Shown here: piece by piece, positions 1,849 through 50,396 of the stretch
Layout: every line of letters starts with the position of its first letter
Numbering within the stretch: the stretch's first letter is position 1
Assembly: GCA_902776725.1 (NCBI GenBank)
Contig: CACYQX010000007.1
Coordinates: 1 to 50,396, forward strand
DNA from: an uncultured Eubacteriales bacterium
GTDB taxonomy: Bacteria; Bacillota; Clostridia; Peptostreptococcales; Anaerovoracaceae
Length of the DNA stretch: 50,396 bases
Reading direction: 5' to 3'
The notes under the pieces: generated by a model
The model's input: the letters and a program-made list of their open reading frames with translations, nothing else
What the model was told of the DNA's origin: nothing
The model's database searches: none
Made by a program: the position numbers and the translations under genes

Positions 1849-1850
1849 AA

Positions 1851-2609
1851 CTATTCTCCTTTCTCTTCTTTAACTACTTCTGCAGCGGCTTCAGCGTTAG
1901 CTGCTTCCTTGGCGGCTGCTGCCTTTGCTGCGGCAGCTTCCTTTTCTGCAGCCTTGGCGCTTGCGATTATTGCGGCATCCTCTTCACCAAAGTCTCTGAC
2001 CTTTACGGACTTGTCTTTGGTAAGATGATTTACCAATGCTACGAGCACTGCGAATGTGAAGAATCCACCCGGAGGAAGATTCATAATGCCTACTCCCGGA
2101 ACGCTTTCCGGAATAACCCTCATTGTAAAGAGCGTTCCCTTGCCTATGAATTCTCTTATGAGACCCATGGCTACGAGCACAACCGTATAACCGATGCTCA
2201 TTCCAACGCCGTCGAGGAAGGAATCAAAGATTCCGTTCTTGCTGGCAAACATCTCCGCACGTCCGAGGATGATGCAGTTTACTACGATTAGCGGAATGAA
2301 CAGTCCGAGCGACTGATACAGCGATGGAGCAAATGCCTGAACCATCATCTGAACCACGGTTACAAAGCCCGCAATTACTACTATGAAGCAAGGTATACGA
2401 ACATTGTCCGGAATGATTTTTCTGATTGCGGAAATAACTATGTTAGACATAATCATTACCGCCGAGAATGCCACGCTCATACCCAGCGCGTTTATCGCAT
2501 CGGAACTTGTGGCCAGTACCGAACAGCAACCGAGAAGGAGAACCAATACCGGATTCTCTTTGATGATGCCGTTCGTTAGAATCGAAAGCTTACTTTTCTT
2601 TTCTTCCAT
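1851..2609 (-). CDS. rnfE: Rnf complex subunit E, membrane protein with charged tail
   Basis: RnfE is the inverted-topology partner of RnfA in the Rnf core. The hydrophobic body (about residues 15-195) contains NPVLVLLLGCCSVLATS and VVNCIILGRAEMFA, the segments that carry the intramembrane Fe-S cysteines in this family. The protein then continues with a roughly 50-residue tail of Ala, Lys and Glu (from about residue 205) that the common short RnfE lacks; it looks like a soluble helical extension. The ATG overlaps the rnfG stop codon (TAATG), and GGGAGG lies just upstream. RnfE is 252 residues here, against about 200-230 usual for the family. Confidence 0.94.
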   Translation of the reverse strand: MEEKKSKLSILTNGIIKENPVLVLLLGCCSVLATSSDAINALGMSVAFSAVMIMSNIVISAIRKIIPDNVRIPCFIVVIAGFVTVVQMMVQAFAPSLYQSLGLFIPLIVVNCIILGRAEMFASKNGIFDSFLDGVGMSIGYTVVLVAMGLIREFIGKGTLFTMRVIPESVPGVGIMNLPPGGFFTFAVLVALVNHLTKDKSVKVRDFGEEDAAIIASAKAAEKEAAAAKAAAAKEAANAEAAAEVVKEEKGE

Positions 2610-3181
2610 TACTGAGCACCTCCCATCTGACTAAACTGCTGGAGCGCTGCGTAGATTCCGTAGTGGACGGCATCCGATGATACGGAGGCTCCCGATACGT
2701 GATCCACTGACGGTTCTGATTTGGCGGCTGTTGCCGTAAGCGACGACAGACCGATGTATTGACTCAGGTGCGCTTCTGTCATCGCGTTGGTTCCTACACC
2801 GGGCGTATCCGCATGTGAGCTGACCTGAATACCCGTTATTGCGCCGTCGGAACCTATTCCTACCATTTCTACAAGCGGACCACCGAAGGAAGCGGTCGAA
2901 ACCGTAACAACGATTCCGCTTCCGTTATCCGCGACATATACTTCCTGTACGGAAACCTTGTTGTCCTCAGAATGCCAGAGGTCGCCGTCGAATTCCGTAA
3001 ATGACTCAGCCGCAGGAAGAAGTACCTGTCTCGCCGCATCCGCATCAGCCTTGGCTCTGCCCTCAATAATAGGACTCGTGATTCCGTATGTTGCAGCGAG
3101 CGCAGCGGATACCACTAGGCATATTCCGACCAGCACTATGATAGGCTTAATAAATTGTTGGAAAGCACTATTGTTATTCAT
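2609..3181 (-). CDS. rnfG: Rnf complex subunit G, covalent flavin-binding subunit
   Basis: RnfG carries a covalently bound FMN on the outer face of the membrane and passes electrons within the Rnf complex. The 190-residue protein has one N-terminal membrane helix (about residues 13-33) and an FMN-binding domain with the flavinylation motif SGASVS at residues 163-168. The usual motif ends in Thr (SGATxT), so here the FMN acceptor would be Ser168. I chose the ATG at 3181 rather than an upstream ATG at 3208: it is preceded by GGAGGAGG and overlaps the rnfD stop by 8 bases. No apbE flavin transferase gene is in the window. Confidence 0.94.
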   Translation of the reverse strand: MNNNSAFQQFIKPIIVLVGICLVVSAALAATYGITSPIIEGRAKADADAARQVLLPAAESFTEFDGDLWHSEDNKVSVQEVYVADNGSGIVVTVSTASFGGPLVEMVGIGSDGAITGIQVSSHADTPGVGTNAMTEAHLSQYIGLSSLTATAAKSEPSVDHVSGASVSSDAVHYGIYAALQQFSQMGGAQ

Positions 3182-4169
3182 CTTTCTTAGCACCTCCTCC
3201 GTAAGCAAGCCTTATGCAAAGCATATCTATAAGCGGCGTCATAATATTCATGAGAAGAATCGAGAACGAAACGCCTTCGGGATAACCGGCCCAGAACCTG
3301 ATTACCATTGTGAAGAGTCCACACCCTATGCCCATGATTATTTTTCCGAGCGGCATTATCGGACTAGTTACATAGTCCGTAGCCATAAATACCGCACCGA
3401 GCATTACGCCACCTGCCATCACGTGATAAAGTCCCATGTGAGCGGCGGAAACTCCTTTGATTGGGTTTGCCATATAGTATAGGAACGCGAATACGAATAC
3501 CGTTCCAACAAAGGCGACCGTCGTATGCGGTACGATTATCTTCTTCCAAACGAGAATCGCAAATCCTATGAGAAGAGCGATTGTGCTCACCTCACCTATT
3601 GAACCGCCGATAGTTCCGATGAAGAGATTCATGAGGCTCGGAAGTCCTCTTGCAACTCTTACTGTTCCTACTACCGCGAGCGGTGTCGCTCCAGTTGTTG
3701 CGTCAGCGGTCTGCTGAGCAATAGGAAGCGGCCATGTGGTCATCTGTGTTGCAAACGAAACCAGAAGAACTATTCTTGCAACGATTGCAGGGTTTGCAAA
3801 GTTTCTTCCGAGACCACCGTAGAGCTGCTTAACGAGAACTATTGCAACAAAGCATCCGATAACCGCCATCCAAATCGGAAGTGTCGAAGGAACGTTGAAC
3901 GCAATCAGCGTTCCCGTAACGACCGCCGATAGATCCTTAACGGTGTTCGGCTTCTTCATCAGTTTCTCATAAGCCCATTCAAAGAATACACAAGAAGCGA
4001 TGCAGACTACCGTCATGATGAGCGCGTTTATTCCGAATACATAAACGCCCATTGCGAGTGCCGGAGCAAGAGCTATAAGCACCCACATCATCGTCTTCTG
4101 CGTATCCATCTTTGTGACAAGATGCGGCGAAGAGGATACTGTCAAATTATCGTAATAAACTTTTTCCAT
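3174..4169 (-). CDS. rnfD: Rnf complex subunit D, covalent flavin-binding membrane protein
   Basis: RnfD, a homologue of NqrB, is a polytopic membrane subunit with a covalent FMN that takes part in coupling electron flow to ion transport. The 331-residue protein has many hydrophobic helices. It has the flavinylation motif TGAT at residues 159-162 within ADATTGATPLAVV, with Thr162 the expected attachment site, and the GGLGRNFANPAI segment near residue 118. Its ATG overlaps the rnfC stop by one base (TAATG), typical of tight coupling in the operon. Length and motifs match the family. Confidence 0.96.
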   Translation of the reverse strand: MEKVYYDNLTVSSSPHLVTKMDTQKTMMWVLIALAPALAMGVYVFGINALIMTVVCIASCVFFEWAYEKLMKKPNTVKDLSAVVTGTLIAFNVPSTLPIWMAVIGCFVAIVLVKQLYGGLGRNFANPAIVARIVLLVSFATQMTTWPLPIAQQTADATTGATPLAVVGTVRVARGLPSLMNLFIGTIGGSIGEVSTIALLIGFAILVWKKIIVPHTTVAFVGTVFVFAFLYYMANPIKGVSAAHMGLYHVMAGGVMLGAVFMATDYVTSPIMPLGKIIMGIGCGLFTMVIRFWAGYPEGVSFSILLMNIMTPLIDMLCIRLAYGGGAKKDE

Positions 4170-31820: not shown

Positions 31821-32324
31821 TTACTCTTTGCCAAAACGCTTGCGCATCATGGGCTTAATTCCGCCGGCCTCCAGTATCTTAAGCGCCTGGTCTCCGAGCT
31901 GATCGCAGTTCATGACTTCTCCGGTTTCCTCGATGGTAACTGTCCCCGCTTCCAAGTCTAGAGCAAGTGTCTGTCCCTCTTTTACTCGTTCGCTTATTCC
32001 CTTACATACAACGGGAACGAGGCCAAGGTTTACTGCGTTTCTAAAGAATATCCTTGCAAAGGATTCTGCAAGAACCGCAGAGGCACCCATATTGAGAAGC
32101 GCTATCGGCGCATGCTCCCTGCTTGAGCCGCATCCGAAATTTCTTCCTGCCACCACTATTCCTCCCTGAGGAAAGTTCGGTGATATATCTTCGCTGATTC
32201 CAAAGAAGCAGTGCTCTCCGATTTGTTTTGGATCCGTAATCGCAAGATAGCAACCCGGGTAAATCTGATCCGTATCTATGTTGTCGCCAACAACTATTGT
32301 TTTTCCTACAATCTTTTTATTCAT
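31821..32324 (-). CDS. Aconitase-family hydro-lyase, small (LeuD-like) subunit
   Basis: The swivelling small subunit of a LeuCD-type hydro-lyase. The 167-residue protein contains VVGDNIDTDQIYPG, FFGISEDISPNFPQGGIVVAGRN and the active-site loop GCGSSREHAPIAL (about residues 60-72). The ATG at 32324, after GGAGGCC, gives the family N-terminus; a longer frame upstream overlaps the large subunit. Length fits 3-isopropylmalate dehydratase small subunits, but homologous pairs hydrate maleate, citraconate or 2,3-dimethylmalate. The operon has malic enzyme instead of leuB, which argues against leucine synthesis. Confidence 0.9.
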   Translation of the reverse strand: MNKKIVGKTIVVGDNIDTDQIYPGCYLAITDPKQIGEHCFFGISEDISPNFPQGGIVVAGRNFGCGSSREHAPIALLNMGASAVLAESFARIFFRNAVNLGLVPVVCKGISERVKEGQTLALDLEAGTVTIEETGEVMNCDQLGDQALKILEAGGIKPMMRKRFGKE

Positions 32325-32335
32325 TTTGCGGCCTC

Positions 32336-33595
32336 CTAAAGATACTCTCTTGGATCTGTTATCTTTCCATTTAGTATGCTTGCCGCAACCGTCGCCGGAC
32401 TCGCAAGATAGATCAGCGATTCGTTGGAACCCATGCGTCCCGGGAAATTTCGGTTGGTGCTTGTGATACAAACCTCACCCGGTGCGATTACGCCTTCGTG
32501 CGCGCCGAGGCAAGCTCCGCATCCCGGAGTGGAGATGGAAGCGCCGGCATCCATAAGGTCTTTGATGTATCCCTTCTCCATGCATTCCTTCATGACTTCC
32601 GCTGATGCCGGAACTATAACCAATCTCGCATAAGGAGGAATATGTTTTCCTTTTAATATTTTGGCTGCGATTTCAAAATCTTCAGTGCGTCCGCCCGTGC
32701 AGCTTCCTATATAGCCCTGATCCAGTTTAACTTCGCCACTCGCGATAACCTCGCTTAGCGGATGCACGTTCTCCACGCTGCTTGGGCAGGCGAGGTTCGG
32801 TTCTATTTTGCTTACATCGAATAGATAACTTTCGCTATATACAAAATCGGGATCTGTTTCCTGAATTTCAAATTGGCGAACAGCCCTTTCCGTAACATAA
32901 TCTATTACTTCTTGGTTGGGCTTCATATATGCGGTCTTTGCGCCCATCTCAACCGCCATATTGCATATCGTCATACGACCTGCGATATTTAGATTCTCCA
33001 CATAACTACCAGTAAAATCGACAGCCTTGTAGACGGCACCGTCCGCTCTGATTTTCCCAAGAACCTCAAGTATAACGTCCTTCGGGAAAACGCCCTTTTG
33101 GGTTTCACCTTCAAGTCTAACCTCGATTATTTCCGGTACTCTGAACCAAAGTTCTCCCGTCATGAGTATGGTCGCCATATCGGTTGCCCCACAGCCGGTT
33201 CCCATAGCACCAAATGCCCCGTGGGTAGTGGTGTGGCTGTCCGTTGCGACAACTATCATTCCGGGATAAATAACGCCCGCTTCCGGCATTACCTGATGGC
33301 ATACGCCACGGTCTATATCAAAGTGGAATTTGAGATTGTTCTTCTGCGCGAACTCTCTCATTTCTTTATGGTTGGATGCACTCTTCACATCCGGACAGGG
33401 CGCATAATGATCAAAAACAAAAGCGCAGCGGGTATTGTCCCACACTTTTTCTCCACCCATCTCATAAAAAGAGTAGACGGTCTGAAGGTACAAATCGTTG
33501 ATCTCGGCAAAGTCGACCTTGGCCACTACGATTTCCCCTGTGTGTACCACATCCCTGCTGCTGTTCTTAGCAAGTATTTTTTCTATTGCGTGCAC
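32336..33595 (-). CDS. Aconitase-family hydro-lyase, large (LeuC-like) subunit
   Basis: The [4Fe-4S]-containing large subunit. The 419-residue protein has DSHTTTHGAFGAMGTGCGATDMA, the cluster cysteines in GSCTGGR and TPGCGACLGAHEG, and TNRNFPGRMGS. These are typical of the group that includes 3-isopropylmalate dehydratase, homoaconitase-like enzymes, 2,3-dimethylmalate dehydratase and maleate hydratase, so the substrate is open. The start codon is GTG at 33595 with AGGAGG before it. It is first in the operon, directly downstream of the palindrome at 33635-33660. Confidence 0.9.
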   Translation of the reverse strand: MHAIEKILAKNSSRDVVHTGEIVVAKVDFAEINDLYLQTVYSFYEMGGEKVWDNTRCAFVFDHYAPCPDVKSASNHKEMREFAQKNNLKFHFDIDRGVCHQVMPEAGVIYPGMIVVATDSHTTTHGAFGAMGTGCGATDMATILMTGELWFRVPEIIEVRLEGETQKGVFPKDVILEVLGKIRADGAVYKAVDFTGSYVENLNIAGRMTICNMAVEMGAKTAYMKPNQEVIDYVTERAVRQFEIQETDPDFVYSESYLFDVSKIEPNLACPSSVENVHPLSEVIASGEVKLDQGYIGSCTGGRTEDFEIAAKILKGKHIPPYARLVIVPASAEVMKECMEKGYIKDLMDAGASISTPGCGACLGAHEGVIAPGEVCITSTNRNFPGRMGSNESLIYLASPATVAASILNGKITDPREYL

Positions 33596-35390: not shown

Positions 35391-36191
35391 TCACTGTTCG
35401 GCACCGCGCTCTTTACCCCGGTTCTCTCTGCCATCAACCTTCTTGAAAACCCAATAACTAATATGGAAGAGCAATAACACGATTATAAAGAATGCAATAT
35501 ATCTTACAAGTTGTGATTCCGGGAACCATTGGGCAACATTACCTCCCACGGCGCCCCCTTGACTCTCACCGTTTATATACATGAAGTTTGCCCCGGGTTT
35601 TTTTTTGTTTGCTATGACGCAAGGAATAGACAGTAGCGCCAGGCAACCTTGTGCCACCCAGATATCTTTATACTTCGGTCCTTTCCCATGCACGAACATC
35701 ATATAGTAGGTCATAAAAATCGGAAGTTCGTGCTCAAGCCAGAACTGATAATACCTGTAATACGTTGGACCGGTCTTTGTAATCACCGTCGGCATTATCA
35801 AAGGAATCATGCCCAGCGTGAGCGAGAGGAAAAAACAGATCCCAAAGAGCGTGTCGTTCTTACTCATCACCATAAAGACGCAAGCAATGAGCGCCCATTG
35901 ACATACCTGAAGCGGAAGTTTGATCATCAGGCTGTTAATTCCCGACTCATCGCCGACATATAAGAGTCTCCAGAAATACGACATCTCAACAATAATCATG
36001 ATAAATGCCATTATATATCTGAAGCGCCCTTCCCACTTCCATTCTCGTATGCTAGTTCTTTTCTTGTATGTCAAAACAATCCCACATATAAGCAAAACTA
36101 TGGGCAAGAAATGCCAAAATGAATAATACTGAAAATCTCCCGGCTCTCCGTATCCGAAGAAGCCCTCATCGTTAAAAGTGTACACGTTCAA
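35391..36191 (-). CDS. YwaF/TMEM164 family membrane protein
   Basis: An integral membrane protein of about six to seven helices, 266 residues, resembling the YwaF family (TIGR02206-type), of unknown function in bacteria; the eukaryotic relative TMEM164 has been linked to lipid acyl transfer. Visible features are FWHFLPIVLLICGI near residue 26, ELPIFMTYYMMFVHG near residue 156, and a Lys/Glu/Arg tail. The start is uncertain: TTG at 36191 or GTG at 36185, with an in-frame TGA just upstream and no strong ribosome site. It converges with the AEC gene (6-base gap). Confidence 0.75.
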   Translation of the reverse strand: MNVYTFNDEGFFGYGEPGDFQYYSFWHFLPIVLLICGIVLTYKKRTSIREWKWEGRFRYIMAFIMIIVEMSYFWRLLYVGDESGINSLMIKLPLQVCQWALIACVFMVMSKNDTLFGICFFLSLTLGMIPLIMPTVITKTGPTYYRYYQFWLEHELPIFMTYYMMFVHGKGPKYKDIWVAQGCLALLSIPCVIANKKKPGANFMYINGESQGGAVGGNVAQWFPESQLVRYIAFFIIVLLLFHISYWVFKKVDGRENRGKERGAEQ

Positions 36192-36541: not shown

Positions 36542-39500
36542 TTATCTGTTTAGTTTTCTGCGACAGTTTGCAGCGACCATCAAGATCAAAGAAGCTACTA
36601 TGATGATGAACCACAGAATGATGTTTGACTCGTCGCCGGTGTTAGCCGCTGCTTTCGCCTCGGCCGCACCGCTCGCCGCGTCGGCATCATCTGCCGAGGT
36701 TGACGAATCTTCTTTCTCCGGAATTTTGGTATCCTGATAAGCTACCGTATAACCAGAGAAGAGGCTTGATGAAAATTCAAATCTTGTTTCCTCTGTCGGT
36801 CCCGCAAGAACCTTAGTCTCGCCTTCGTGTGCGCGTATAACGATGAACGCTCTTGTGTAACCTTCAGGAGCCGTTCTGAGCTCTTCAGGAACAATAACCA
36901 CAAATGTTATTTCCTCACCTATATCGTGAACAAGCGTAGCAGAATCGTCGCCTATCTGCTTGTAGACTTTGATATCCAGATATATGCACGAAGTGTAACC
37001 CATATTTTTTACGAGTGCAGATGTGATTTCTTCTTCTTCAGCAGTAAGCTCATCCACCTCAGTAATCTCAAGATATACATGGCCTATCTCTCCACCCTCT
37101 TTTACGCGCTCAATCTCTTCCTCTGTGAGCAGGGAAAGGGCCGCCTCTTCACTTAGACCTCTTGCCTCAAACTGCATTCCATGCGAATAGATGTCTGTCT
37201 CTATTATGAGCTCGCCATTACCCTCTTCATAAGTTTCGTTTGAGCCCTCTCTGATCTTCCAATCATGAGTTATTGTAGGCTCTCCATCCTTAACCAGATA
37301 GTTCATAGCCTTCTCGCCTTCAAGAGATACAACTTTAGCCGTATATTTGCCGGAGGCTTTCGCTACGTTCTCAGAATAGAGGATTACTATGCTCTTTTCG
37401 TCAGCATTTACCGCACCCTCCAATGTAGCTGTTATCGATTTCTCCTCTCCGTCAAAATCAAACTTGCTATTCTCCTCGTCCGGCCATTTGAAGCTTACGA
37501 CTTTCGGAGAAACCATGAGCGCTCCGCCTACGTATTCGATTTCGTAGTTTTCTGATGTCAAACCGCTGGCATTGATCGCATATGTTCCGATATCTTCATA
37601 CTGCTTATATCCGATTGTGTATTCAAGAGTTCCTTCAAGTACGCTCTCGTCTTCACCCTCTACAAAGCCATCGTATCTGCATGTTCCTTCGGTAATATCT
37701 TCACCGTAGATGATTTCCTTATCGTCTGCAGTTATTGTAAGCGCCTTCTTATTGATAACAACCTCTTCACTTGCTGCAATCGGCTTGTAGTTTTCGGATA
37801 CTATTAGATAGTAGATAGCAGCCGACTCGTTTACATCCTTAAGCCTTGGGCTCTCCTCGTAAACAACATCACTTAGGTCTCCCTTTGTAATTGTCACTTC
37901 GCCTGTTTGCGGATCCTCTTCTTCTATTTCAGTATCATCAAATCTACCGAGAAGGAGTTCGAGTTTTTCTCCCGTGATATCGTTTGCTAGATCCTCAAGG
38001 AATGCATCTCCGAGAAGTTCTACGAAGGATGTCATGCTGTAGAATACCTTTGCCTCTTCAGCATCTCCCCTTGTTGTTATACCTACCGTGATTCCGTGGG
38101 CCTCGCCATCATACAATGCTTCCCAACCTGCGGCCCGGTAATCAACGTCACCCTTTGTTATGGTATATACACCTTCATCGTATGTGATGTCATAATTGTT
38201 AAGTGCATCTTCGTTTGTTGCTACTAGGTCGATATCGTATGCACCGACTTTCTGGATGTCCGTAATAGCATTTCCTTCTTCGTCAACGCATGTATATGCG
38301 ATTCCGAGGTCGTCTCCCCACACATAGTTTTCCATGGTGTCCTCTGTAATTGTATATGTGAATGGTTCAAGTCCTTCCATATACTTTGAAGTCTTATCGT
38401 CTGCCGCGATTTCTATCTGGGCCTTCTCAATTTCAAATGTTGCATATCCCGAAAGTCCTTTGTAACTATCTGTTTCCTCAACATGTGCCCTTACTGTATA
38501 TTCGCCGGCCTTAGTCGGAACCTCTGCTGTCCAGTCTGCCTCGTCGTCGGAATTGCTCGGACGATATGTAAATGTAACTTCACCGAATTTTGCTTCTGCG
38601 CTTGGTGCATTTGTTGCTTCACCATATGTCCAGCCTTCAATCTCCGGCTCCTCTGTCCAGCTGTTGTCAGCCTGCTCTATTCCCCAGTTCTGAGTGGTGC
38701 TGTCCGCATTCTCATCAAAGGTGTAGTTAACAGCCTTTCCGGATTCAGGAAGTGCAGTTACTCTTGCAGTATAATCGCCTGCATCTATAGCCTTGCCCTG
38801 CTCGTATGTCAGTTCTCCGAGCTCATCTCCGTTAAGAGTTACAGGAACTGCTATAACCTTATGCTCTTCTCCGTCATACTGATATCCAAAGTCAGTCAAG
38901 CTGCCGATTTCACTAATCCATGTGAATGTCAGAACGTGCTTGCCAACAACCAGTTTGCCGGGTGCGTAGATGATATTGTAGTTATTTGACTCAATACCCT
39001 TTGCGGTTACATCATACTCACCAACATTCTGGAATTTGGTGTATGTATAGTCGTAGTCAAGGTTTGTGATAACAAGGTCATCAGTGCAACCTGTCGGAAT
39101 TGTATAGCTGATTCCTTCCTTTGCATCTACAGGCTTTCCTGCGTCAGGCTCCTCACCATAAACGATATGCTGGTCATTTGTAGTAACCGTGAGGTCAGCC
39201 TTGGTGATTGTTACAGTCTTGGATCCCGATACTGCATCTCCCTTGTCAGGATTCTTATCAAAGTTCTCAGACTCGATATAGTAGTAAACGGTCTTTGTTC
39301 CTACGTCTGTGAGCGATACACTCTCAGCAAGTGGATCGTCTGTCTTTTCTGCTGTTTCAATATTCTCTTCTGTAAGTTCTACATCCGAGTACCAAATGGT
39401 TGCATCGTGTAGATGTGGTTCAATGATTTCTACATCGATTCCATGTGGCTGTCCATCATAGACAGCGCTTACATCAGAAGCAGATATATTTAGATATCCC

Positions 39501-42500
39501 TTTGTGATTGAATATGTTCCTTTGCTGATTGTTGCACTATAGTTCGGGTTCTCATCCCAGTTGGCATTGATGTCATATTCACCAACAGAGCTGAGCAGTG
39601 TGGCGTCTGTTGATAGCACGATTCCGAGTTCGTCTCCTTCTACATAGTCACCACTTACTGTATAAGAGAGCGGAAGGAGTGCTGTGCGGTACATGCTTAT
39701 CTTATCATCTGCGCCGATTACAATCTCTGCAGGCTTAATCTGGAAGTCAACCGTTGCTTTGATTTCTCTATAGTTCTCTGTTCCCGGAACCGTTGCACGC
39801 ATGATGTAATTTCCTGCTTCAGTCGGAACTTCGCTTGTATATGAATCAAGGATATGCAGGAGACCTGCCTTCTTGTATTCATAAACCACTGTGTCTTTTC
39901 CAAGTTTAGCTACTGAAGTCGGTATGCTTGCAGTCTTTCCGTATGTCCAATCGCTAATAGCCGGCTCAATATTCCACGCATTATCGCTCTTGGTAATTTT
40001 CCAATTGTGGCTTATGCTCTTTTCGCTTGCGAGCATTACATAGTTTGCAGCATCGCTTCCTGCGATTGAGAGAACCTCTGTAACATAGGCACCAACATTG
40101 GTCTCTTCGTTTCCGTTATAGCTATTTACATTTACATCGTCTCCGTTAAGAGCATTTGCTATTGTAGCGGTAGGTCTATGTGCCTCTGCGTCATAAACGT
40201 AGCTGTTTTCACTCCATGTGAATGTTACAGCCTTTGGTTCTACCGTCATAACGCCACTTACGTAGCTGATCTCGTAGTTGGCGGAGTCGAGTCCAAATGG
40301 GATAATGTCGTATTCACCAACATTGCTTCCCTCTGCATACTCAACGCCAGCCTTCTCATATCTATAAGACAGTGCACCGTCAAGATCGCTTTCGTCTTCA
40401 CCTGCGATGAATCCGCTGTATGTTACACCGGCATTTTCTGCCTCGTCACCGTATGTGATAGTATTTTCATTTGCTGTAACTGTCAGTTCAATCTTGTTAA
40501 CTGTTACATCTACACTTCCTGCGATTGCAGGCTCGCCTTCATAGTATCTGGACTCTACGAAGTAGTAGATAGTCTTTGTTCCGGCGTCTTTTACCGTTAC
40601 GCTCTCAGCTGTTGCTGACTTTGTTCCGACTGTCTTATAGTTCTCAACGGTCAGTTCTTCAGTTGCATAGTAGATAGTTGCCTTTCCTTCTTCGTTAGGA
40701 TCAAGGGTAACCTTGATGCCATGAGCCTTACCATCATAGTTTCCGATATATCCTTCTGCGGATACGCCCATCTTTGCCTTTGTGATGGTGTATGTTCCGT
40801 TTACAGGAGTGATATCGTAGTTTCTTGTGATATGTGCATCATCGCTTGTCGTAACTGTGATTTCGTATTCACCTGCGGCAGCGGTGCTTGCAGCTTCTGT
40901 TGTCAAAACGATACCGAGGTCGTCGGTTCCATAGGCCATTCCGCCGAGCTGGTATGTAAGCGGTTTGAGTGTTTCGCCGTGTGTGGATGCCTTGTTGTCA
41001 GCCTGAACGGTGATTTCTCTCTGTCCGATTACGAACTCGTCTATCGAGAACGAACCTTCATAAAGGTCTGTTCTCTCAAGAGTAGCCTTTACATAATATG
41101 TGCCTGCGTAAGATGGTCTTCCACCTACTGAAGCTGCTCCATCGGCTGCTGTAGTCTTATTCTCGCAAGCTTCATCTGTGAAGAATTCAACTACTGCCTT
41201 GTCTGCATCAAGCTCTGCAGTAACAACTGCTTCGTTTGCCATATCGCCGTATGTCCAATCCTCCACAGAAACGTTTACCATATTGCTGAACGGAACAACA
41301 CTCCATGCATAGCTTGCACTCTCGCTTCCTGTGAGTGTGTAGTTCTTTGCCTTTGCTCCGGTGAGCTCTGTTGCTGTAGCGGTATAATCGCCAACCTCGG
41401 TCTTTGCATTGTTTGTATATGCTGCAACGCTTATAACATCACCGAGGATAGCATTTGTTACTTCAGCAGTTACGCTTCTTTCTGTTCCGTTATAATTGAA
41501 CTCGCTAGGTGTAGTCCACTCAAGTTCTACAACCTTAGGATTAACCGTAAGTGTTCCTGTCTTATATGTAGCTTCGTAGTTATGCTTACCTTCTGCTTCT
41601 TTTAGTCCGGAAGCGGTAATAGCATAAGCCCCTACTTCTGGCTCTTCCGTATAGTTCTGATAGTCAAATGTCATAGCAGACATATCTAGAACATCTTCTG
41701 TCTCGCCTTCTACCAGACCATCTACGGCAATCTTTTCACTTATCTCTGTATCGGCTGTTTCTGCAGGATCGCCATATACAATTGCTCTATCCTTTGCGAT
41801 AACAGTGAGTGCCGCAGGTTTAATTTCTACAGTTTCAGTACCAACGATTACATCCGGCTTGGACTGATCGGTGATTACGATATAGTGAATATCTGCAACC
41901 TGAGCATCGTGCATTACCGGGCTCGTAAGCTCGTAATTCTTTGTTGCGAGAGCTGTCGCAAGTGCTGTGTATGCTGCCTCAAACTCTTCATCACTCTTGT
42001 CATAAGCATCATGAACGTTTGCTACAAGCGCATTGATTTCAGAATCAAAGCCTTCAGCTGCTGTGTAATAAACAGCTGCTCCGCTATCTCCAACAACCTC
42101 TACCGTGATTCCATGGTCGTCATTCTGACCGCCGTAGATTCCGGTATAGCCCTCTGCATTAACAACAGTGTCATTTCTGGTTACTGTGAATGTTCCCTCT
42201 ACAAAGGTTACATTGTAGTTACCCAAAACGTCCGATTCGTTTTTCCAATTGGGGATTGTCTGATACTTTCCTGCCTTTGTGATATCTGCGTCTGTGGATA
42301 CCTCTATCTTTTCGTCAAGAGCCGCACGGTCTGCTTCAACAAAGTCGCCTGCTACTGTATATGTGATAACAGGAAGTGCCTCGCCGTTTCTTACGACCAT
42401 ACCGTCATCAGCAGTAACCTTGATTGTTGCCTTTTCTATTACAAAGGCCTTTGTAGCAGATGCTTCTGCGTAATTTGTTGTCTCAGGAACTGTAGCCCTG

Positions 42501-45500
42501 ACCATATAGTTTCCTGCATTTACAGGAACTTCTACTGTCCAGTTCTCTCCGTCTTCGGAATATGTATAAGCAACACTTTCTTCACCGAACAAAGCCTTGG
42601 CTGTAGGAGCATTTGCGCTCTTTCCGTAGGTCCAACCTGCGATATCTACAGTAACTTCGTTTTCAGTCTTTTTGATTTCAAGTTCTCCGGACTCACCTTC
42701 TGCGATAGCATAGTTCATAGCATCGCTTCCTGTGAGAGCCTCAAGCTTAACCTGATATGTTCCAACATTGGTTGCAACGTTTCCTGTCAGACTTCCGGCG
42801 TTTACTTCCTCTCCGGAAATGATGTCGGACGCATTAAGCTGAACAAGATTCTTGTTATATATCTTTGCTGTTCCATCGTATGTGTATGAGTCTTTCTCAT
42901 ATGTAACATGGATTTCCTTCTTTGTGATAGTAGCCTTTACATCAGTAGGTGCTACGAGCGTGTAGTTTGATGCATCCTTTCCATCAAGAGCAAGTCCGCT
43001 TACCTGAACGCTATGCGTTCCTACATTCTTGTTTGCGCTTACTGCTGAAGCTCCTGCAACATCTACAGTCACTTCATCGCCTGCGCATACTCCTACGAGA
43101 GCCACCTCATTAGCGTCAATTTCTACGCCGGTGGATCCGTTGTATACACGGGTTACACCCTTTATTCCGGAAACTGTAAGAGTCTTAACTGTGATTGATG
43201 CATTAAGTGTTCCGCCAAATGCCTCATAGTTATCCGGAATAATATAGTAGAAATAGATTCCGCTATCAGCTACAGTTTCTACATCGTAGCCGCTATTTGT
43301 GGTAGCGCTTGCTGTCTTCGCTTCTGCGGCAGCCTTTGCTTCAGCCTCAGTCTTGCCGTAGCCAATCTTATATGCGTGGCCCTCGTCCTCTGTCTTTGCT
43401 GTTGCCTTGATTGCATGATTGGTTCCGTCATAGATGCCCGCGTAGTTCTCAGCCTTAACCTCAAAGTATTCAGCATTTGCCTTTACGATATTGAACTCTG
43501 CAGAAACAGATTCTGACTCGGCAAAGTTTCCGCCGGCCTTTGCAACTACTGTTACAGTTGCTGTTCCAACTTTGATATTGTTATTCCATGTCAAAGTGTA
43601 ATCATCTGCGCTTACAACATCGCCGTTCTTATCATAAACGGTGAGCTTCGGCATGATTGCATTTCCGGTATATTTCATATTGGCGATAGCCTTGATATGG
43701 TCAAACTCGTTCTGTTCCCACTGTGCGTAGAGAGTATAGTGTTCAGAAGTTCCGAGGTCTTCGTTCCAAACTGTCTTAACTCCAGCCTTATATGCTGTGC
43801 CCGTTCCGTCAGCCTTTGTATTCCACTCAACAAAGCTGTATCCGGCCTTTGTGTATCCGCACTCTACAGGAGTAATGGTTTTACCTTTAGCGATTGTGGC
43901 AGCCATCTCACCGCCTTCTCCGCCGTTTCCTTCGTAGTAGAGATCCGGATCGAGGTTCCAATGCGCATAGAGTTCTTCGTTATCGCTGAACGCATATTCA
44001 TCACCGGCGTTTCCTACCTTTGTTCCGCCGAATGCTTCTGTAAACCAACCATCAAATGTATAGTTTTCTCTCTCAGGAAGTGCAGGGAGCTTGATAATAG
44101 CATCGTCCCATTTAACTGTGAGAGTCTTTGCTGCTGTGAAATATGTTGCAGCAAATGCAGGAGTTAGCTTTCCGCTTGTAGCGATCAGCATTGTCTCTCC
44201 GTCAAAGTATCCGGCAAATTTTGCATTTGCGGACATATTGTCTGGATCCTGAACGTCGCCATCTGCATTGGCATCAAACGTTACAAGAAGCTCGCGTGAA
44301 GGAACTTCTATAGCATCAAGTTCTATAGCTGCTTCGCTATCTTCAAATACTCCTTCTGCATATTTTTCATAAATCTTTTTTGTGCCTTCTTCGGTAGCTC
44401 CGTTCTGAGATAGAGTAATCTCATATACGGAAGCTTCCCAACCTGCATAGAGGTTTGTTGCCTGTGTATATTTCTCATAGAAGGATTCCGGAATTGTTCC
44501 GTCTGCAGGGATAACAGCTGTTCCTTCAGCATCTGTATTCTCGTAGAAACCTGTGAATGTATAATTTTCACGAGTAGGTACTGTAACAGGGCTTGAGAGT
44601 GCAGTCTTATGCTCTGCGTCCTGATAGTATCCGCTGTTGTCCTTATATGTATAATTGATTTCCTTTGTGTAATCGTTTGTGGCATCAGGTGCAACAAGTA
44701 CAACCGTGATGTCCGCAGCCTTCCATGTGGCTGTCATTGTTACAGAACCACCATTTGCATTCAGCTTTCCAAATGATGTTCCCATAACTGCAGTAAGTTC
44801 TTCTGCCGTTGTCTCTTCGCCACCGGCAATATGAGTTGTACCCGCATCCATTCCGGCGATAGTCCAACCAGTGAACTTGTATCCGGCCTTTGTTGGGTTT
44901 GCAAGATGGAATGTCTTGTTGTAGTCGTATGACTTAACCTCATCCTGAGCAACATCCTCATGAACTCCACCGTTAAGGTCATAGCTTACTTCATATTTAT
45001 CGTCAGCCCAGATTGCAGTAACTTCTACCTCGCCCTTCTGGCCTCTCAGGTTAAGAAGTATAACCTTCTCATCTGCTTCATCTACAGAATATGTATATGT
45101 GTGATCCGTAACTTCTGTTCCTGCTATTACATGGTGGGCTCCATCCATTCCTGTGATCTTCCATCCCATGAATACATAGCCTGCGCGAGTCGGAGCCTTT
45201 ACACTGAATGACTCGTCAAATGTTGCAGCATACGGATTCTCTGTTCCTTCTGCAAGAGTTCCGCCGTTAGCATCGTATCTAACCGTGTATGTATTTGCAG
45301 TCCACTTTGCAACAAAGTTTACTGTTCCTGCTTCAGCACGGAGATTCTTGAATGTCGTTTCAACAACATCATCAGCACTTGCATCAGTACTTGTATGAGT
45401 CCCGATGCTGTGAGTAACTTCGGCTTCCATTCCGCTTATAGTCCAGCCTGCAAATGTATAGCCTTCTCTTACAGGATGATGGAGTGTGAACGTTTCATCA

Positions 45501-48499
45501 AATGTTGCAGTAGCTGTTGCTTCTTCCTCTGTTGAATCGCTGATGCTTGAACCGGCGAGCTTTCCACCGTTTGCATCAAGAGATACAGTATAAGTTTTAG
45601 CAGTCCACTTTGCATAGAGCGTTTTATCCGAAGCAACCTTATGCGGGTTGTTTACAAATGCGCCTGCTGCTGTTATATACTGAGCGCCTGCACCATTTGG
45701 GCTTGCATAGTATCCGCCAAATTCATAGCCTGTGCGAGCAGGCACTTCAATAGATTCAATCTGAGCCTTATGCTCACTATCCGAATAATACTTTGCAGTA
45801 TCAAACGTATAGTAAGCACTCTTTGTTCCTTCGCTTGTTGCGTTCTGTCCGTCAAGAGTGATTACATAATTGTTAGCCTTCCACTGAGCATAGACTGTAA
45901 TCGTTCCACCGTTTGTTGATGTTAGGTTCTTAACGCTTGCGCCGTTTGAATAAGCAGTACCTGTTCCATCCGCCTTGGTGTTCCATCCATTGAAGGAATA
46001 TCCCGTCTTGGTAAAGCCGTTGTTTGTAAGGTTCTTTGCTGTGTCGTAAGTGTGAGTTGACTTAGCTGTGCTTCCGCTTGTGTTTCCGTTTCCGTTGTAT
46101 TCAACATACCAGGTGTTAGCCTTCCACTGAGCGTAGAGTGTAACTGTTCCGCCGTTTGTTGAAGTAAGGTTCTTAACGCTTGCACCATCGGCATAAGCTG
46201 TACCTGTTCCATCAGCCTTGGTATTCCAACCATTGAATGTATAACCCGTCTTGGAATAAGCGTTTGATGTAAGAGCCTTGCTTGCATCATACGTATGGCT
46301 CGAGTTGCTCATTGAGCCTGATGTGCTTTCGTTTCCGTCATATTTTACGGAGTATGTATTTGCTTTCCACTTTGCATATAGATTTACGGTTGCGGCATTG
46401 GTTGTTGTAAGGCAAGTTACCTTCTGCTGGTTAGAATAGTTAGTACCAGTCCCGGAAGAATTTGTATTCCATCCATTAAATGTGTAACCCGTCTTGCTGA
46501 ATGCGTTTGCAGTTAGCGCTGTACCTACCTCCTGCCAAATCTTCTGGCTTGACATGGAGCCACCGGTGTTTCCGTTTCCGTTGAACTTTACATAATAATG
46601 TACACGCTCAAAGATCCAGTCACCCTGTGTGCCCGAGGTTGCATTCCAAAGGTGAATAGCTGTAGCACCGGCTGTGTTACCTCCTTCTGTCTGGAGATGC
46701 ATGCCTGTGTTTGTTCCGTTTGTAATACGGTAGTACTTGCCGTTATCTACACTCTTGAGCCACCACTGGTCAAAATCTTTATAGTTAGAGGATGTCTTGT
46801 ACCACATGTGGACCTTTGTTCCGTTGGAGCTAACATAGCTGGCACCACCCTCCGGGCTCATGATGTAATTAGTATTGTCGCGGAGCTTGATATAGAAATT
46901 GTAATTAATCTTCTGAACTTTAAACTGTCCACTGGAGTCTTCGCGCTTCTCGCCATTACTAAGCACAAATTTGTTTCCGTTCTCAAGAGTGCCGGTATAC
47001 TGTACTATGGATCTCTTTGGATCCTTTCTTAGACGAATAATATATACACCACCATCTACAACGCTATCTGATGTTGTGTTGTATGCTGTTTCAAACTCTT
47101 CGACTTCCTCTTCGGTGGGTTCTTCTTCCTCAGTTGCTTCAGTTCCCATCTGATATTCAGCAATGTCTTTTCCAAGAGAAAGGCCTGCTGCTACCTTTGC
47201 ACTTGCTTCTGATGTAGAGTCTGCGATTGCCCAAGCATCTACATAAGAACCGCTGTTGGAGAAACCGGCGATTTCTCCTTCTGCATTAAGAGCACCAACG
47301 GTGATTGCGGACCATACGTTAGCAGGACAATATCCTGATGCATCAGCAGCATCGTTACCCGCAGCTACAACTACGTAGATTTCTTTAGCGATTGCTTCAT
47401 TAATAATGCTTTCTATAGCAGCACTGTAACCTCTTGCACTGAACGGGAGAACTATGATGTCTACTCCGGATTCAATCGCAAGCTTTACTCCTGCATATAC
47501 AGATGCGACAGAACCTTTTCCGTTTCCGTCGAGAGCTTTAATTGATATTATTTTTGCATTTGGATTTTCTATTGCTATTATCGAGGCAAGACCTGTACCG
47601 TGTCCGTTGCTATCAGCACCGTTATCACCAAGTACAGAGAGAGTTGTAATGACATTGAAACCACCCGCTCCTGTATCAACGAGAGCGATTGTATTCTTAC
47701 CGCTTATTACAGGTGTTGTTTCTTCACTGGCTGCCGCGAGCGGGTTATCGTTTGCAGATGCAGAATCTGCCTGCGCAGATGCAGACGCGGTATCGACATT
47801 GGTTGGAGCAGATTCATTTGTTGATGCGTTTACTGCACCATCTATCGATGCAAAGATTGCTATAGATTCATAATATCTCTGTGCCGCGTTCAGTTCTTCT
47901 GCAGAGTCAAAACCGAGAAGAGCAACATCATCAAATGTTCCGAGAACCGCATCCTCTTCTCTTGTATTGATGCTTCCACCAAAGCCAACAAGCAGTCTGT
48001 ATCTAAACTGCTTGTTTGGGTCTATGCCGTAATCTTCACCCGCAGTTTCTTCCGCTTCTTCGGTAGTCACTTCCTCTGCAGGTACTTCTTCACTGACAGC
48101 TTCAGCAGCAGGGATTTTTTCTTCGGGAGTTTCTTCAGAGGCAGATATCTCTGCTTCTCGAAGCTCTTCCTCCATATTAGTCTCGGATTCGGCAACCGCT
48201 GCATTAAACGCTTCAATTTCTTCAATTGCGTATTCATACGAAGCTTCCGAAGTTACCATTTCCGCAACTTCCTCCGCCGATGCCTCATCGGCTTCATCAG
48301 CTGCCACTATATACTCCTCTGAAACTATTTCTTCAGCAGACTCTCCTTCAGGAGCTGCCACTAGAGTTTCTTCAGCACTCTCTTCTTCACCCTCCAACGC
48401 GGGAACGTCATCGAGAGCAAAGGAATATGTAGGCATCATGCTAAAAATCAGCATGACACACATTACTAAAGCTGTGATTTTCTTTAATTCTCTAGTCAT
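36542..48499 (-). CDS. Giant secreted S8 protease/lectin/InlB-MBG repeat surface protein
   Basis: A 3985-residue secreted protein. Residues 1-33 are a signal peptide, and an acidic Glu/Ala stretch and possible propeptide follow (35-260). The subtilisin-like domain has Asp275 in ALVDTGAGG, His300 in NGHGTGLAS, Asn382 in VAAGND and Ser430 in DSTSEASAKVAAG. A ricin-type lectin domain follows (about 480-630), then about ten InlB-type repeats (about 635-1605, e.g. KTGYTFNGWNTKADGTGTAY). Then comes a long run of MBG/YDG-like Ig domains (about 1605-3755), a C-terminal beta-rich domain, and an anchor: NTGDE at 3953-3957, hydrophobic helix, RRKLNR. It may bind host glycans and process proteins at the cell surface. 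The ATG at 48499 follows GAGGTGA; the frame also opens at a GTG nine bases upstream. Confidence 0.88.
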   Translation of the reverse strand: MTRELKKITALVMCVMLIFSMMPTYSFALDDVPALEGEEESAEETLVAAPEGESAEEIVSEEYIVAADEADEASAEEVAEMVTSEASYEYAIEEIEAFNAAVAESETNMEEELREAEISASEETPEEKIPAAEAVSEEVPAEEVTTEEAEETAGEDYGIDPNKQFRYRLLVGFGGSINTREEDAVLGTFDDVALLGFDSAEELNAAQRYYESIAIFASIDGAVNASTNESAPTNVDTASASAQADSASANDNPLAAASEETTPVISGKNTIALVDTGAGGFNVITTLSVLGDNGADSNGHGTGLASIIAIENPNAKIISIKALDGNGKGSVASVYAGVKLAIESGVDIIVLPFSARGYSAAIESIINEAIAKEIYVVVAAGNDAADASGYCPANVWSAITVGALNAEGEIAGFSNSGSYVDAWAIADSTSEASAKVAAGLSLGKDIAEYQMGTEATEEEEPTEEEVEEFETAYNTTSDSVVDGGVYIIRLRKDPKRSIVQYTGTLENGNKFVLSNGEKREDSSGQFKVQKINYNFYIKLRDNTNYIMSPEGGASYVSSNGTKVHMWYKTSSNYKDFDQWWLKSVDNGKYYRITNGTNTGMHLQTEGGNTAGATAIHLWNATSGTQGDWIFERVHYYVKFNGNGNTGGSMSSQKIWQEVGTALTANAFSKTGYTFNGWNTNSSGTGTNYSNQQKVTCLTTTNAATVNLYAKWKANTYSVKYDGNESTSGSMSNSSHTYDASKALTSNAYSKTGYTFNGWNTKADGTGTAYADGASVKNLTSTNGGTVTLYAQWKANTWYVEYNGNGNTSGSTAKSTHTYDTAKNLTNNGFTKTGYSFNGWNTKADGTGTAYSNGASVKNLTSTNGGTITVYAQWKANNYVITLDGQNATSEGTKSAYYTFDTAKYYSDSEHKAQIESIEVPARTGYEFGGYYASPNGAGAQYITAAGAFVNNPHKVASDKTLYAKWTAKTYTVSLDANGGKLAGSSISDSTEEEATATATFDETFTLHHPVREGYTFAGWTISGMEAEVTHSIGTHTSTDASADDVVETTFKNLRAEAGTVNFVAKWTANTYTVRYDANGGTLAEGTENPYAATFDESFSVKAPTRAGYVFMGWKITGMDGAHHVIAGTEVTDHTYTYSVDEADEKVILLNLRGQKGEVEVTAIWADDKYEVSYDLNGGVHEDVAQDEVKSYDYNKTFHLANPTKAGYKFTGWTIAGMDAGTTHIAGGEETTAEELTAVMGTSFGKLNANGGSVTMTATWKAADITVVLVAPDATNDYTKEINYTYKDNSGYYQDAEHKTALSSPVTVPTRENYTFTGFYENTDAEGTAVIPADGTIPESFYEKYTQATNLYAGWEASVYEITLSQNGATEEGTKKIYEKYAEGVFEDSEAAIELDAIEVPSRELLVTFDANADGDVQDPDNMSANAKFAGYFDGETMLIATSGKLTPAFAATYFTAAKTLTVKWDDAIIKLPALPERENYTFDGWFTEAFGGTKVGNAGDEYAFSDNEELYAHWNLDPDLYYEGNGGEGGEMAATIAKGKTITPVECGYTKAGYSFVEWNTKADGTGTAYKAGVKTVWNEDLGTSEHYTLYAQWEQNEFDHIKAIANMKYTGNAIMPKLTVYDKNGDVVSADDYTLTWNNNIKVGTATVTVVAKAGGNFAESESVSAEFNIVKANAEYFEVKAENYAGIYDGTNHAIKATAKTEDEGHAYKIGYGKTEAEAKAAAEAKTASATTNSGYDVETVADSGIYFYYIIPDNYEAFGGTLNASITVKTLTVSGIKGVTRVYNGSTGVEIDANEVALVGVCAGDEVTVDVAGASAVSANKNVGTHSVQVSGLALDGKDASNYTLVAPTDVKATITKKEIHVTYEKDSYTYDGTAKIYNKNLVQLNASDIISGEEVNAGSLTGNVATNVGTYQVKLEALTGSDAMNYAIAEGESGELEIKKTENEVTVDIAGWTYGKSANAPTAKALFGEESVAYTYSEDGENWTVEVPVNAGNYMVRATVPETTNYAEASATKAFVIEKATIKVTADDGMVVRNGEALPVITYTVAGDFVEADRAALDEKIEVSTDADITKAGKYQTIPNWKNESDVLGNYNVTFVEGTFTVTRNDTVVNAEGYTGIYGGQNDDHGITVEVVGDSGAAVYYTAAEGFDSEINALVANVHDAYDKSDEEFEAAYTALATALATKNYELTSPVMHDAQVADIHYIVITDQSKPDVIVGTETVEIKPAALTVIAKDRAIVYGDPAETADTEISEKIAVDGLVEGETEDVLDMSAMTFDYQNYTEEPEVGAYAITASGLKEAEGKHNYEATYKTGTLTVNPKVVELEWTTPSEFNYNGTERSVTAEVTNAILGDVISVAAYTNNAKTEVGDYTATATELTGAKAKNYTLTGSESASYAWSVVPFSNMVNVSVEDWTYGDMANEAVVTAELDADKAVVEFFTDEACENKTTAADGAASVGGRPSYAGTYYVKATLERTDLYEGSFSIDEFVIGQREITVQADNKASTHGETLKPLTYQLGGMAYGTDDLGIVLTTEAASTAAAGEYEITVTTSDDAHITRNYDITPVNGTYTITKAKMGVSAEGYIGNYDGKAHGIKVTLDPNEEGKATIYYATEELTVENYKTVGTKSATAESVTVKDAGTKTIYYFVESRYYEGEPAIAGSVDVTVNKIELTVTANENTITYGDEAENAGVTYSGFIAGEDESDLDGALSYRYEKAGVEYAEGSNVGEYDIIPFGLDSANYEISYVSGVMTVEPKAVTFTWSENSYVYDAEAHRPTATIANALNGDDVNVNSYNGNEETNVGAYVTEVLSIAGSDAANYVMLASEKSISHNWKITKSDNAWNIEPAISDWTYGKTASIPTSVAKLGKDTVVYEYKKAGLLHILDSYTSEVPTEAGNYIMRATVPGTENYREIKATVDFQIKPAEIVIGADDKISMYRTALLPLSYTVSGDYVEGDELGIVLSTDATLLSSVGEYDINANWDENPNYSATISKGTYSITKGYLNISASDVSAVYDGQPHGIDVEIIEPHLHDATIWYSDVELTEENIETAEKTDDPLAESVSLTDVGTKTVYYYIESENFDKNPDKGDAVSGSKTVTITKADLTVTTNDQHIVYGEEPDAGKPVDAKEGISYTIPTGCTDDLVITNLDYDYTYTKFQNVGEYDVTAKGIESNNYNIIYAPGKLVVGKHVLTFTWISEIGSLTDFGYQYDGEEHKVIAVPVTLNGDELGELTYEQGKAIDAGDYTARVTALPESGKAVNYTFDENADSTTQNWGIEQADNSWTEEPEIEGWTYGEATNAPSAEAKFGEVTFTYRPSNSDDEADWTAEVPTKAGEYTVRAHVEETDSYKGLSGYATFEIEKAQIEIAADDKTSKYMEGLEPFTYTITEDTMENYVWGDDLGIAYTCVDEEGNAITDIQKVGAYDIDLVATNEDALNNYDITYDEGVYTITKGDVDYRAAGWEALYDGEAHGITVGITTRGDAEEAKVFYSMTSFVELLGDAFLEDLANDITGEKLELLLGRFDDTEIEEEDPQTGEVTITKGDLSDVVYEESPRLKDVNESAAIYYLIVSENYKPIAASEEVVINKKALTITADDKEIIYGEDITEGTCRYDGFVEGEDESVLEGTLEYTIGYKQYEDIGTYAINASGLTSENYEIEYVGGALMVSPKVVSFKWPDEENSKFDFDGEEKSITATLEGAVNADEKSIVILYSENVAKASGKYTAKVVSLEGEKAMNYLVKDGEPTITHDWKIREGSNETYEEGNGELIIETDIYSHGMQFEARGLSEEAALSLLTEEEIERVKEGGEIGHVYLEITEVDELTAEEEEITSALVKNMGYTSCIYLDIKVYKQIGDDSATLVHDIGEEITFVVIVPEELRTAPEGYTRAFIVIRAHEGETKVLAGPTEETRFEFSSSLFSGYTVAYQDTKIPEKEDSSTSADDADAASGAAEAKAAANTGDESNIILWFIIIVASLILMVAANCRRKLNR
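37230..43690 (-). repeat. MBG/YDG repeat region with four large units
   Basis: Four copies of a WTYG-containing module lie at 42622-42633, 41246-41257, 39938-39949 and 38631-38642, spaced 1376, 1308 and 1307 bases. Each unit of about 440 residues combines an IxxWTYGxxxN Ig-like module, an ADDK-type MBG module (ADDKISMY, ADDKTSKY), a YDGxxHGI module and an ITYGDE/IVYGEE module with NYEI. The units diverge in sequence but keep the order, which points to old duplications of a whole set of domains. Confidence 0.8.
43690..46600 (-). repeat. InlB-type (Listeria-Bacteroides) repeats
   Basis: About ten modules of 75-120 residues end in WKAN or similar and share TGYTFNGWNTKADGTGT-type centres. Modules two and three are very similar also at DNA level (about 45860-46310), with AACCTGYTFNGW-like blocks recurring at about 216-240 bases, which makes recombination likely. 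Confidence 0.8.
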
Positions 48500-48577
48500 T
48501 TTTCTCACCTCGGTTATCTGTGTCGGTTCATCATAGTAACTTTACCACTGTCAAGACACATTTGTTGTCACCACCTT

Positions 48578-50280: not shown

Positions 50281-50313
50281 TTTTACCTCACAAATTTGAA
50301 TTTGTTTAATTTC

Positions 50314-50379
50314 CTAGGCAGAATTGCAATTTTGCTCGTTTATGCATGCATATTTTGCAAAAATGACATTTCTGCCTAG
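50314..50379. repeat. Long imperfect inverted repeat upstream of the methyltransferase
   Basis: CTAGGCAGAA (50314-50323) is exactly inverted at 50370-50379, and the arms continue inward with AATTTTGC/GCAAAAAT-type pairing, for about 22 bases each with a few mismatches. The centre holds TGCATGCA. It could be an operator, a hairpin in a leader, or a short mobile repeat unit. Confidence 0.55.
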
Positions 50380-50396
50380 CAAATCAGCTGTTTTGC

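What the first reader, a model, noticed from the sequence alone, without database searches (positions are those of the whole stretch)
36542..48499. Giant protein joining protease, lectin, InlB and MBG repeats
One 3985-residue chain carries a subtilisin-type protease with its Asp275, His300 and Asn382, a ricin-type lectin domain, about ten InlB-type repeats and a long MBG/YDG region, with a signal peptide and a C-terminal membrane anchor. The domains are known separately; I know of no described protein with all of them in this order. A lectin beside the protease could place cleavage at a glycan-coated surface.
Basis: partly seen in the sequence, partly recalled or inferred. Interest (0 to 1): 0.75.

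Follow-up and report, generated by a model that had tools for sequence, protein, structure and literature searches.

The report
Miniature subtilisin heading a giant adhesin
A gut bacterium encodes a nearly 4,000-residue surface protein whose outer end carries a shortened subtilisin-type protease; relatives of that short protease sit on other large surface proteins, many of them from ruminant-gut bacteria, and look like a group of their own that our searches did not find described.

Summary
In detail: 36542-48499 (minus strand) is one unbroken 3985-residue frame with signal peptide, S8 subtilase, ricin-type domain, nine or ten InlB repeats, seven to ten MBG_2 and two YDG domains, and a sortase-like AANTGD anchor. 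The more interesting part is the protease. It is compact: about 10 residues fewer between Asp and His, about 15 fewer between Asn and Ser, and a remodelled Ser helix (GTSMASP becomes STSEASA). A motif scan of 84,980 species genomes gave 36 similar domains in 31 genomes, in the N-terminal part of large proteins, many with SpaA, ester-bond or thioester domains and LPXTG-like anchors; 16 of 36 records name a ruminant or its gut, 10 more bear rumen-collection codes (recalled). Asp and His are kept in 37 of 37, Asn and Ser in 36 of 37, which favours an active enzyme. In the slot right after the protease this protein alone of 37 has a ricin domain; others have thioester or other adhesive domains there. 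No other member matched its MBG stalk. Best reading: an anchored stalk displaying a self-processing compact protease beside a binding domain. Activity, substrate and sugar binding are untested.

The parts
36542..48499 (-). gene for the 3985-residue giant surface protein (ATG at 48499, stop codon 36542-36544)
48505..48510 (-). Shine-Dalgarno-like AGGTGA five bases before the ATG
   Evidence: read by eye
48416..48499 (-). signal peptide, residues about 1-28
   Evidence: read by eye; no predictor was run
47819..48007 (-). prodomain-like (I9-like) region, residues about 165-227
   Evidence: aligned with homologues; Foldseek matches to pro-subtilisins run through it; no Pfam I9 hit
47153..47698 (-). 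compact S8 subtilase domain, residues about 268-449
47675..47677 (-). catalytic Asp275
   Evidence: 37 of 37
47600..47602 (-). catalytic His300
   Evidence: 37 of 37
47354..47356 (-). oxyanion Asn382
   Evidence: 36 of 37
47210..47212 (-). predicted nucleophile Ser430
   Evidence: 36 of 37
46565..47092 (-). ricin-type domain, residues about 470-645
   Evidence: Pfam RicinB_lectin_2; cocaprin 1 E 0.0033
43670..46582 (-). InlB-type (Flg_new) repeats, residues about 640-1610
37340..43657 (-). YDG and MBG_2 stalk, residues about 1615-3720
36695..37267 (-). C-terminal domain, 38% identical to the end of another large protein of the same genome
36545..36649 (-). AANTGD sortase-like signal, membrane helix, basic tail

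Best explanation
A sortase-anchored giant surface protein: a long InlB/MBG stalk holds an N-terminal compact subtilase away from the cell wall. The I9-like prodomain probably helps the protease fold and is cut off by it; the mature head then cleaves a narrow set of proteins near the surface, while the ricin-type domain next to it holds it on a target. Shown: frame, domains, conserved catalytic residues, family, predicted subtilisin fold, an often adhesive domain in the next slot of relatives. Inferred: catalysis, self-processing, substrate, glycan binding.
For: Asp and His 37/37, Asn and Ser 36/37 in a set whose members are 27-39% identical to this one; the one Ser loss (L087) is in a copy with a further deletion. 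AlphaFold model pLDDT 89.7, pTM 0.86, ten-residue blocks holding the four residues at 95-98. Foldseek top seven are PCSK9 and unprocessed pro-subtilisin E, TM 0.59-0.63 of the query over 331-358 columns; mature subtilisins and proteinase K follow at about 0.5. In the 36 others the catalytic Asp lies 73-468 residues from the first Met of the frame. 20 of 28 complete members, this one included, have an xTG[DGE]-type motif near the end. Thioester or other adhesive domains follow the protease in several relatives. Three sortases in the genome.
Against: About 15 residues before the Ser are missing and the Ser helix is remodelled; the three printed profile alignments to PDB subtilisins end just before the Ser motif, so Ser430 rests on alignment within the family. 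Triad geometry was not measured (no coordinates). Asn and Ser are no better conserved than several structural residues: 26 of 170 columns stand at 36 or 37 of 37. Top Foldseek fits have rmsd 5-11 A. The prodomain aligns only partly or not at all in 10 of 37 members, and its first helix is not predicted here. No biochemical data.
Confidence: 0.5

Rival explanations
1. PCSK9-like: the domain cleaves itself once at the prodomain, the prodomain stays bound, and the head then works only as a binding module.
For: PCSK9 is the top Foldseek match; catalytic residues kept, loops shortened.
Against: The match may only reflect the prodomain-bound state that was modelled; 10 of 37 members do not align fully to the prodomain and L083 seems to lack it.
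Confidence: 0.22
2. Catalytically dead scaffold: a subtilisin fold kept as an adhesive head.
For: Deletions and remodelled Ser helix; one member lost Ser and one changed Asn; structural residues are as well conserved as Asn and Ser.
Against: Asp and His are among the 13 invariant columns of 170, Ser and Asn at 36 of 37.
Confidence: 0.13
3. Acyl-transfer enzyme: the head forms covalent bonds between the adhesin and a target instead of hydrolysing.
For: Position 225 (subtilisin numbering), usually Pro, is Ala in 35 and Ser in 2 of 37; in engineered subtilisin ligases Ala or Ser there gives more synthesis than Pro (PMC7921005 passages). Relatives are fused to SpaA, ester-bond and thioester domains.
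Against: Those ligases use Cys221, here it is Ser; two non-compact subtilases seen here (L098, L176) also lack the Pro, so its loss is not peculiar to this group; argument by analogy.
Confidence: 0.07
4. Ordinary cell-envelope subtilase of the lactocepin/C5a-peptidase kind.
For: Same overall plan of S8, long body and wall anchor (recalled; search listing only).
Against: Asp-His spacing outside the range of the non-compact sequences, other stalk domains, A1-profile scores of 157 bits or more against at most 86. No lactocepin was compared.
Confidence: 0.06

Closest known systems
Peptidase family S8 (subtilisin BPN', aqualysin, proteinase K)
   Same: fold, Asp/His/Asn/Ser order, prodomain-like region before it
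   Different: Asp-His 22-27 residues against 31-42, and Asn-Ser at most 48 against 63-73, in 13 canonical sequences; Ser-helix Pro replaced by Ala/Ser
Cell-envelope proteinases (lactocepin, C5a peptidase; recalled)
   Same: S8 on a long wall-anchored protein
   Different: compact protease; no PA or Fn3 body domains listed by Pfam
Thioester/isopeptide/ester-bond adhesins
   Same: of the 37, 27 have SpaA and 15 TQ in the first 1250 residues or less; TED or TED_2 after the protease in some; LPXTG-like ends
   Different: they bear a subtilase head; the window protein itself shows none of SpaA, TQ or TED
Fibrillar adhesins with catalytic-looking heads on Flg_new stalks (PMC9210967)
   Same: a possible catalytic domain on a Flg_new stalk is described there (passages)
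   Different: those passages name lyase-, lacto-N-biosidase- and immunoglobulin-protease-like or M26 matches, and a protease P-domain, no subtilase head
QhpE subtilisin-like protease (NF049966) and mycosins (TIGR03921)
   Same: weak model matches in 37 and 36 of 37 members
   Different: window member far below the cut-offs (47.6 against 165 bits; 55.8 against 278.75)

Membership tests
Peptidase S8 | Pfam PF00082 above gathering score | tested here: met
   71.4 against 21.8 bits, over profile 48-200 of 288; not listed in longer scans
Peptidase S8 | Asp, His, oxyanion Asn and Ser in order | tested here: met
   sequence level: D275, H300, N382, S430
Peptidase S8 | triad geometry in space | tested here: inconclusive
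   model confident but no coordinates to measure
Peptidase S8 | GTSxAxP Ser motif | tested here: not met
   STSEASA here; Pro at 225 in 0 of 37 compact members, 51 of 63 non-compact rows by a crude scan
Peptidase S8 | proteolytic activity | not testable with these tools
   needs an assay
Ricin B-type lectin | RicinB_lectin_2 above gathering score | tested here: met
   37.3 and 32.9 against 25.6 bits; missed
Ricin B-type lectin | beta-trefoil fold | tested here: inconclusive
   single-sequence model pLDDT 31
Ricin B-type lectin | sugar binding | not testable with these tools
   needs an assay
Sortase-anchored surface protein | LPXTG-type motif, membrane helix, basic tail | tested here: inconclusive
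   AANTGD rather than LPXTG, then helix and basic tail; another protein of the genome ends with PKTGDESN; three sortases
Lactocepin/C5a-peptidase CEP | PA and Fn3 body domains (recalled) | tested here: not met
   none listed by Pfam
TIE adhesin | thioester, isopeptide or ester-bond domains | tested here: not met
   none in the window protein

The most novel reading that the evidence does not exclude
The compact subtilase group is a natural acyl-transfer enzyme: a shortened subtilisin fold, with position 225 fixed as Ala or Ser, that links the adhesin covalently to proteins it meets, an enzymatic partner to the thioester, isopeptide and ester-bond chemistry of the stalks that many relatives ride on.
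Probability: 0.07. Interest if true: 0.85.

Novelty: new variant of a known kind. Interest (0 to 1): 0.5.

Why it matters
It points to a distinct, much shortened subtilase group used as the outer domain of large surface proteins, in some beside a thioester or other adhesive domain, in records labelled from several Clostridia families, Solobacterium and one Coriobacteriaceae MAG. It would make testable how small a working subtilase can be and whether adhesins of gut commensals carry their own tip enzymes.

Tried and rejected
Frameshift or several genes: rejected, one open frame. Phase-variable promoter: in G002, G010 and G007 the gene directly follows a recombinase-like gene (XerD label recalled, no domain search), in G002 behind a NUDIX-like gene (label recalled), which I read as a housekeeping pair; in the window the upstream gene matches APH, and I saw no convincing invertible repeat. 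First genome-contig scan with the single protein: nothing; viral contigs: nothing; plasmids: one Paenibacillus match, 35%. Ricin model failed. A 350-residue scan meant to look for ricin in relatives was not usable because the window's own ricin was missed; it was redone with 176-residue pieces (107 for L063, cut by the contig end). Literature: (listings are capped; 53 and 58 held 220 and 205 papers, 15 listed each; one search lists PMC9637936 with both InlB B-repeat and subtilase, not read). Papers seen as passages only: PMC9210967, PMC12679949, PMC7921005, PMC9549277. One paper search was left unused.

Full report
Observation. The minus-strand frame 36542-48508 is open throughout; from the ATG at 48499 it gives 3985 residues. 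Pfam on pieces finds S8, RicinB_lectin_2, Flg_new, YDG and MBG_2. The whole-length scan lists only MBG_2, Flg_new and YDG, and the 1250-residue piece only Flg_new and Flg_new_2, so S8 and ricin depend on short pieces. Ricin is found in two of the scans that hold all of it and missed in three. A six-frame genome search finds the S8 at 69.8 bits.

The protease is compact. Pfam covers only profile 48-200 of 288. An alignment with six canonical relatives shows a short Asp-His stretch and a missing segment before the Ser. Five of the 12 other genomes of the genus carry the same form, and G003 has a prodomain-like fragment at a contig end. The profile of these six gave 47 loci in genome contigs; that scan uses two degenerate motifs over 84,980 species genomes and is not exhaustive. 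On the A1 profile 36 loci score 157-443 bits (window 347) and the other 11 at most 86. The 36 include the five same-genus contigs, which built the profile, and come from 31 genomes by record name.

Spacing and catalytic residues. In the 37 compact members Asp-His is 22-27, His-Asn 81-84, Asn-Ser at most 48 (median 48), the lowest being L087 with 23; in 13 canonical sequences Asp-His is 31-42 and Asn-Ser 63-73. A wider crude regex scan gave 64 rows, one of them compact (L133). In the other 63 Asp-His is 29-42; Asn-Ser runs 42-87, partly because the regex caught a wrong residue in some rows, so only Asp-His separates cleanly there. Asp 37/37, His 37/37, Asn 36/37 (L075 has Asp), Ser 36/37 (L087 has Asp). 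Of 170 columns 13 are invariant and 13 more stand at 36 of 37, so Asn and Ser share their rank with structural residues. Position 225 is Ala 35, Ser 2, Pro 0; position 222 is Glu in 28 of 37. In one search, 51 of 63 non-compact rows have Pro at 225; of the 12 others nine do not begin with GTS, two (L120, L138) I judge mis-assigned, and L176 is a real-looking exception, as is L098.

Structure. AlphaFold on residues 150-475 with 36 homologues: pLDDT 89.7, pTM 0.86. Foldseek in the PDB: 250 matches at E<=0.001, 50 printed; the first seven are PCSK9 and unprocessed pro-subtilisin E (TM 0.59-0.63, rmsd 5.2-10.8 A), then proteinase K, aqualysin and subtilisins at about 0.5 with rmsd near 2-3 A for many. 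The predicted prodomain lacks the first helix of the usual fold (usual fold recalled; elements). On the A1 profile 27 of 37 members align from position 5 or earlier and 10 later.

Architecture. In the first 1250 residues or less of the 37, Pfam finds SpaA in 27, S8 in 19, TQ in 15, pilin backbone in 4, TED in 4, TED_2 in 4 and Flg_new in 2 (26 families matched, 25 shown). S8 is under-reported there, the window's own included. Only five relatives were Pfam-scanned whole. In the slot after the protease (176 residues; 107 for L063) TED_2 matches 7, TED 4, CHAP 1, a pectate-lyase-like adhesive domain 1 and ricin 1, the window. Blastp of the window's parts against the 36 frames at E<=1e-3: InlB matches L055, L075 and L087; ricin, MBG region and C-terminal domain none. 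Of 28 complete members 21 match the anchor pattern in the last 140 residues; one (L077, at -111) is not an anchor by position, leaving 20. Nine are cut by a contig or locus end. The window protein is the longest complete one; the other 27 frames are 1193-3128 residues, counted stop to stop.

Distribution. By record title 16 of 36 loci name a ruminant or its gut compartment, 10 more bear RUG/RUI codes that I recall as rumen collections, 10 give no habitat. Names are as deposited; MAG contigs can be misbinned. Whole-genome searches with A2, taking 230 bits as the bar: 6 of 349 genomes of the family, all in the window's genus; 4 of 391 in the class, namely own, G639, G477 and G547, where G547's match stops before the Ser and was not examined; 1 of 398 in the phylum sample, the window's own. 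Those searches scored only a few candidates a genome, so they are lower bounds. In a tree the five same-genus sequences group together (100/99) while the window's lies apart, with the canonical outgroup (91/69, not a strong support; long branches, midpoint root). The window gene is therefore either an early branch or has a separate history.

Mechanism. A PCSK9-like single self-cleavage, a dead scaffold and acyl transfer remain. The last rests on position 225: in engineered subtilisin ligases Ala and Ser there give synthesis/hydrolysis ratios of 4.5 and 6.1 against 0.2 for Pro (table passage, PMC7921005), but with Cys as nucleophile.

Novelty. The searches listed no description of this group; listings were capped and most subscription papers are not held. 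Catalytic-looking domains on Flg_new stalks are already described (PMC9210967 passages), and proteases on wall-anchored proteins are known. I file it as a new variant of a known kind.

Noticed in passing
L044:7348-10672 (G000 contig C1): The other S8 protein found in this genome lies beside a second gene; PADLOC models IetS (188 bits) and IetA (116 bits) match the two: a likely IetAS anti-phage defence pair.
   Followed up: partly
L065, L067, L068, L071, L073, L096, C-terminal ends: In five of the six (not L096) an IPKTG motif lies 74 residues from the end; all six end in a similar basic tail, unusual for a sortase substrate.
   Followed up: no
L087 and L075: Apparently decaying copies: L087 lost Ser and part of the domain, L075 changed the oxyanion Asn to Asp.
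   Followed up: partly
176 residues after the compact protease in the 37 members (A5): The domain following the protease varies: TED_2 in 7, TED in 4, CHAP in 1, pectate-lyase-like in 1, ricin in the window only, of 37.
   Followed up: partly
L035, L036, L037: Three same-genus relatives sit directly after a recombinase-like gene (label recalled).
   Followed up: partly
window 35391-36191 (-): TMEM164-family protein downstream of the giant gene.
   Followed up: no
window 31821-33595 (-): Aconitase domains on two neighbouring genes.
   Followed up: no
window 50309-50384: 25-nt inverted repeat, 84% complementary, at the contig end.
   Followed up: no
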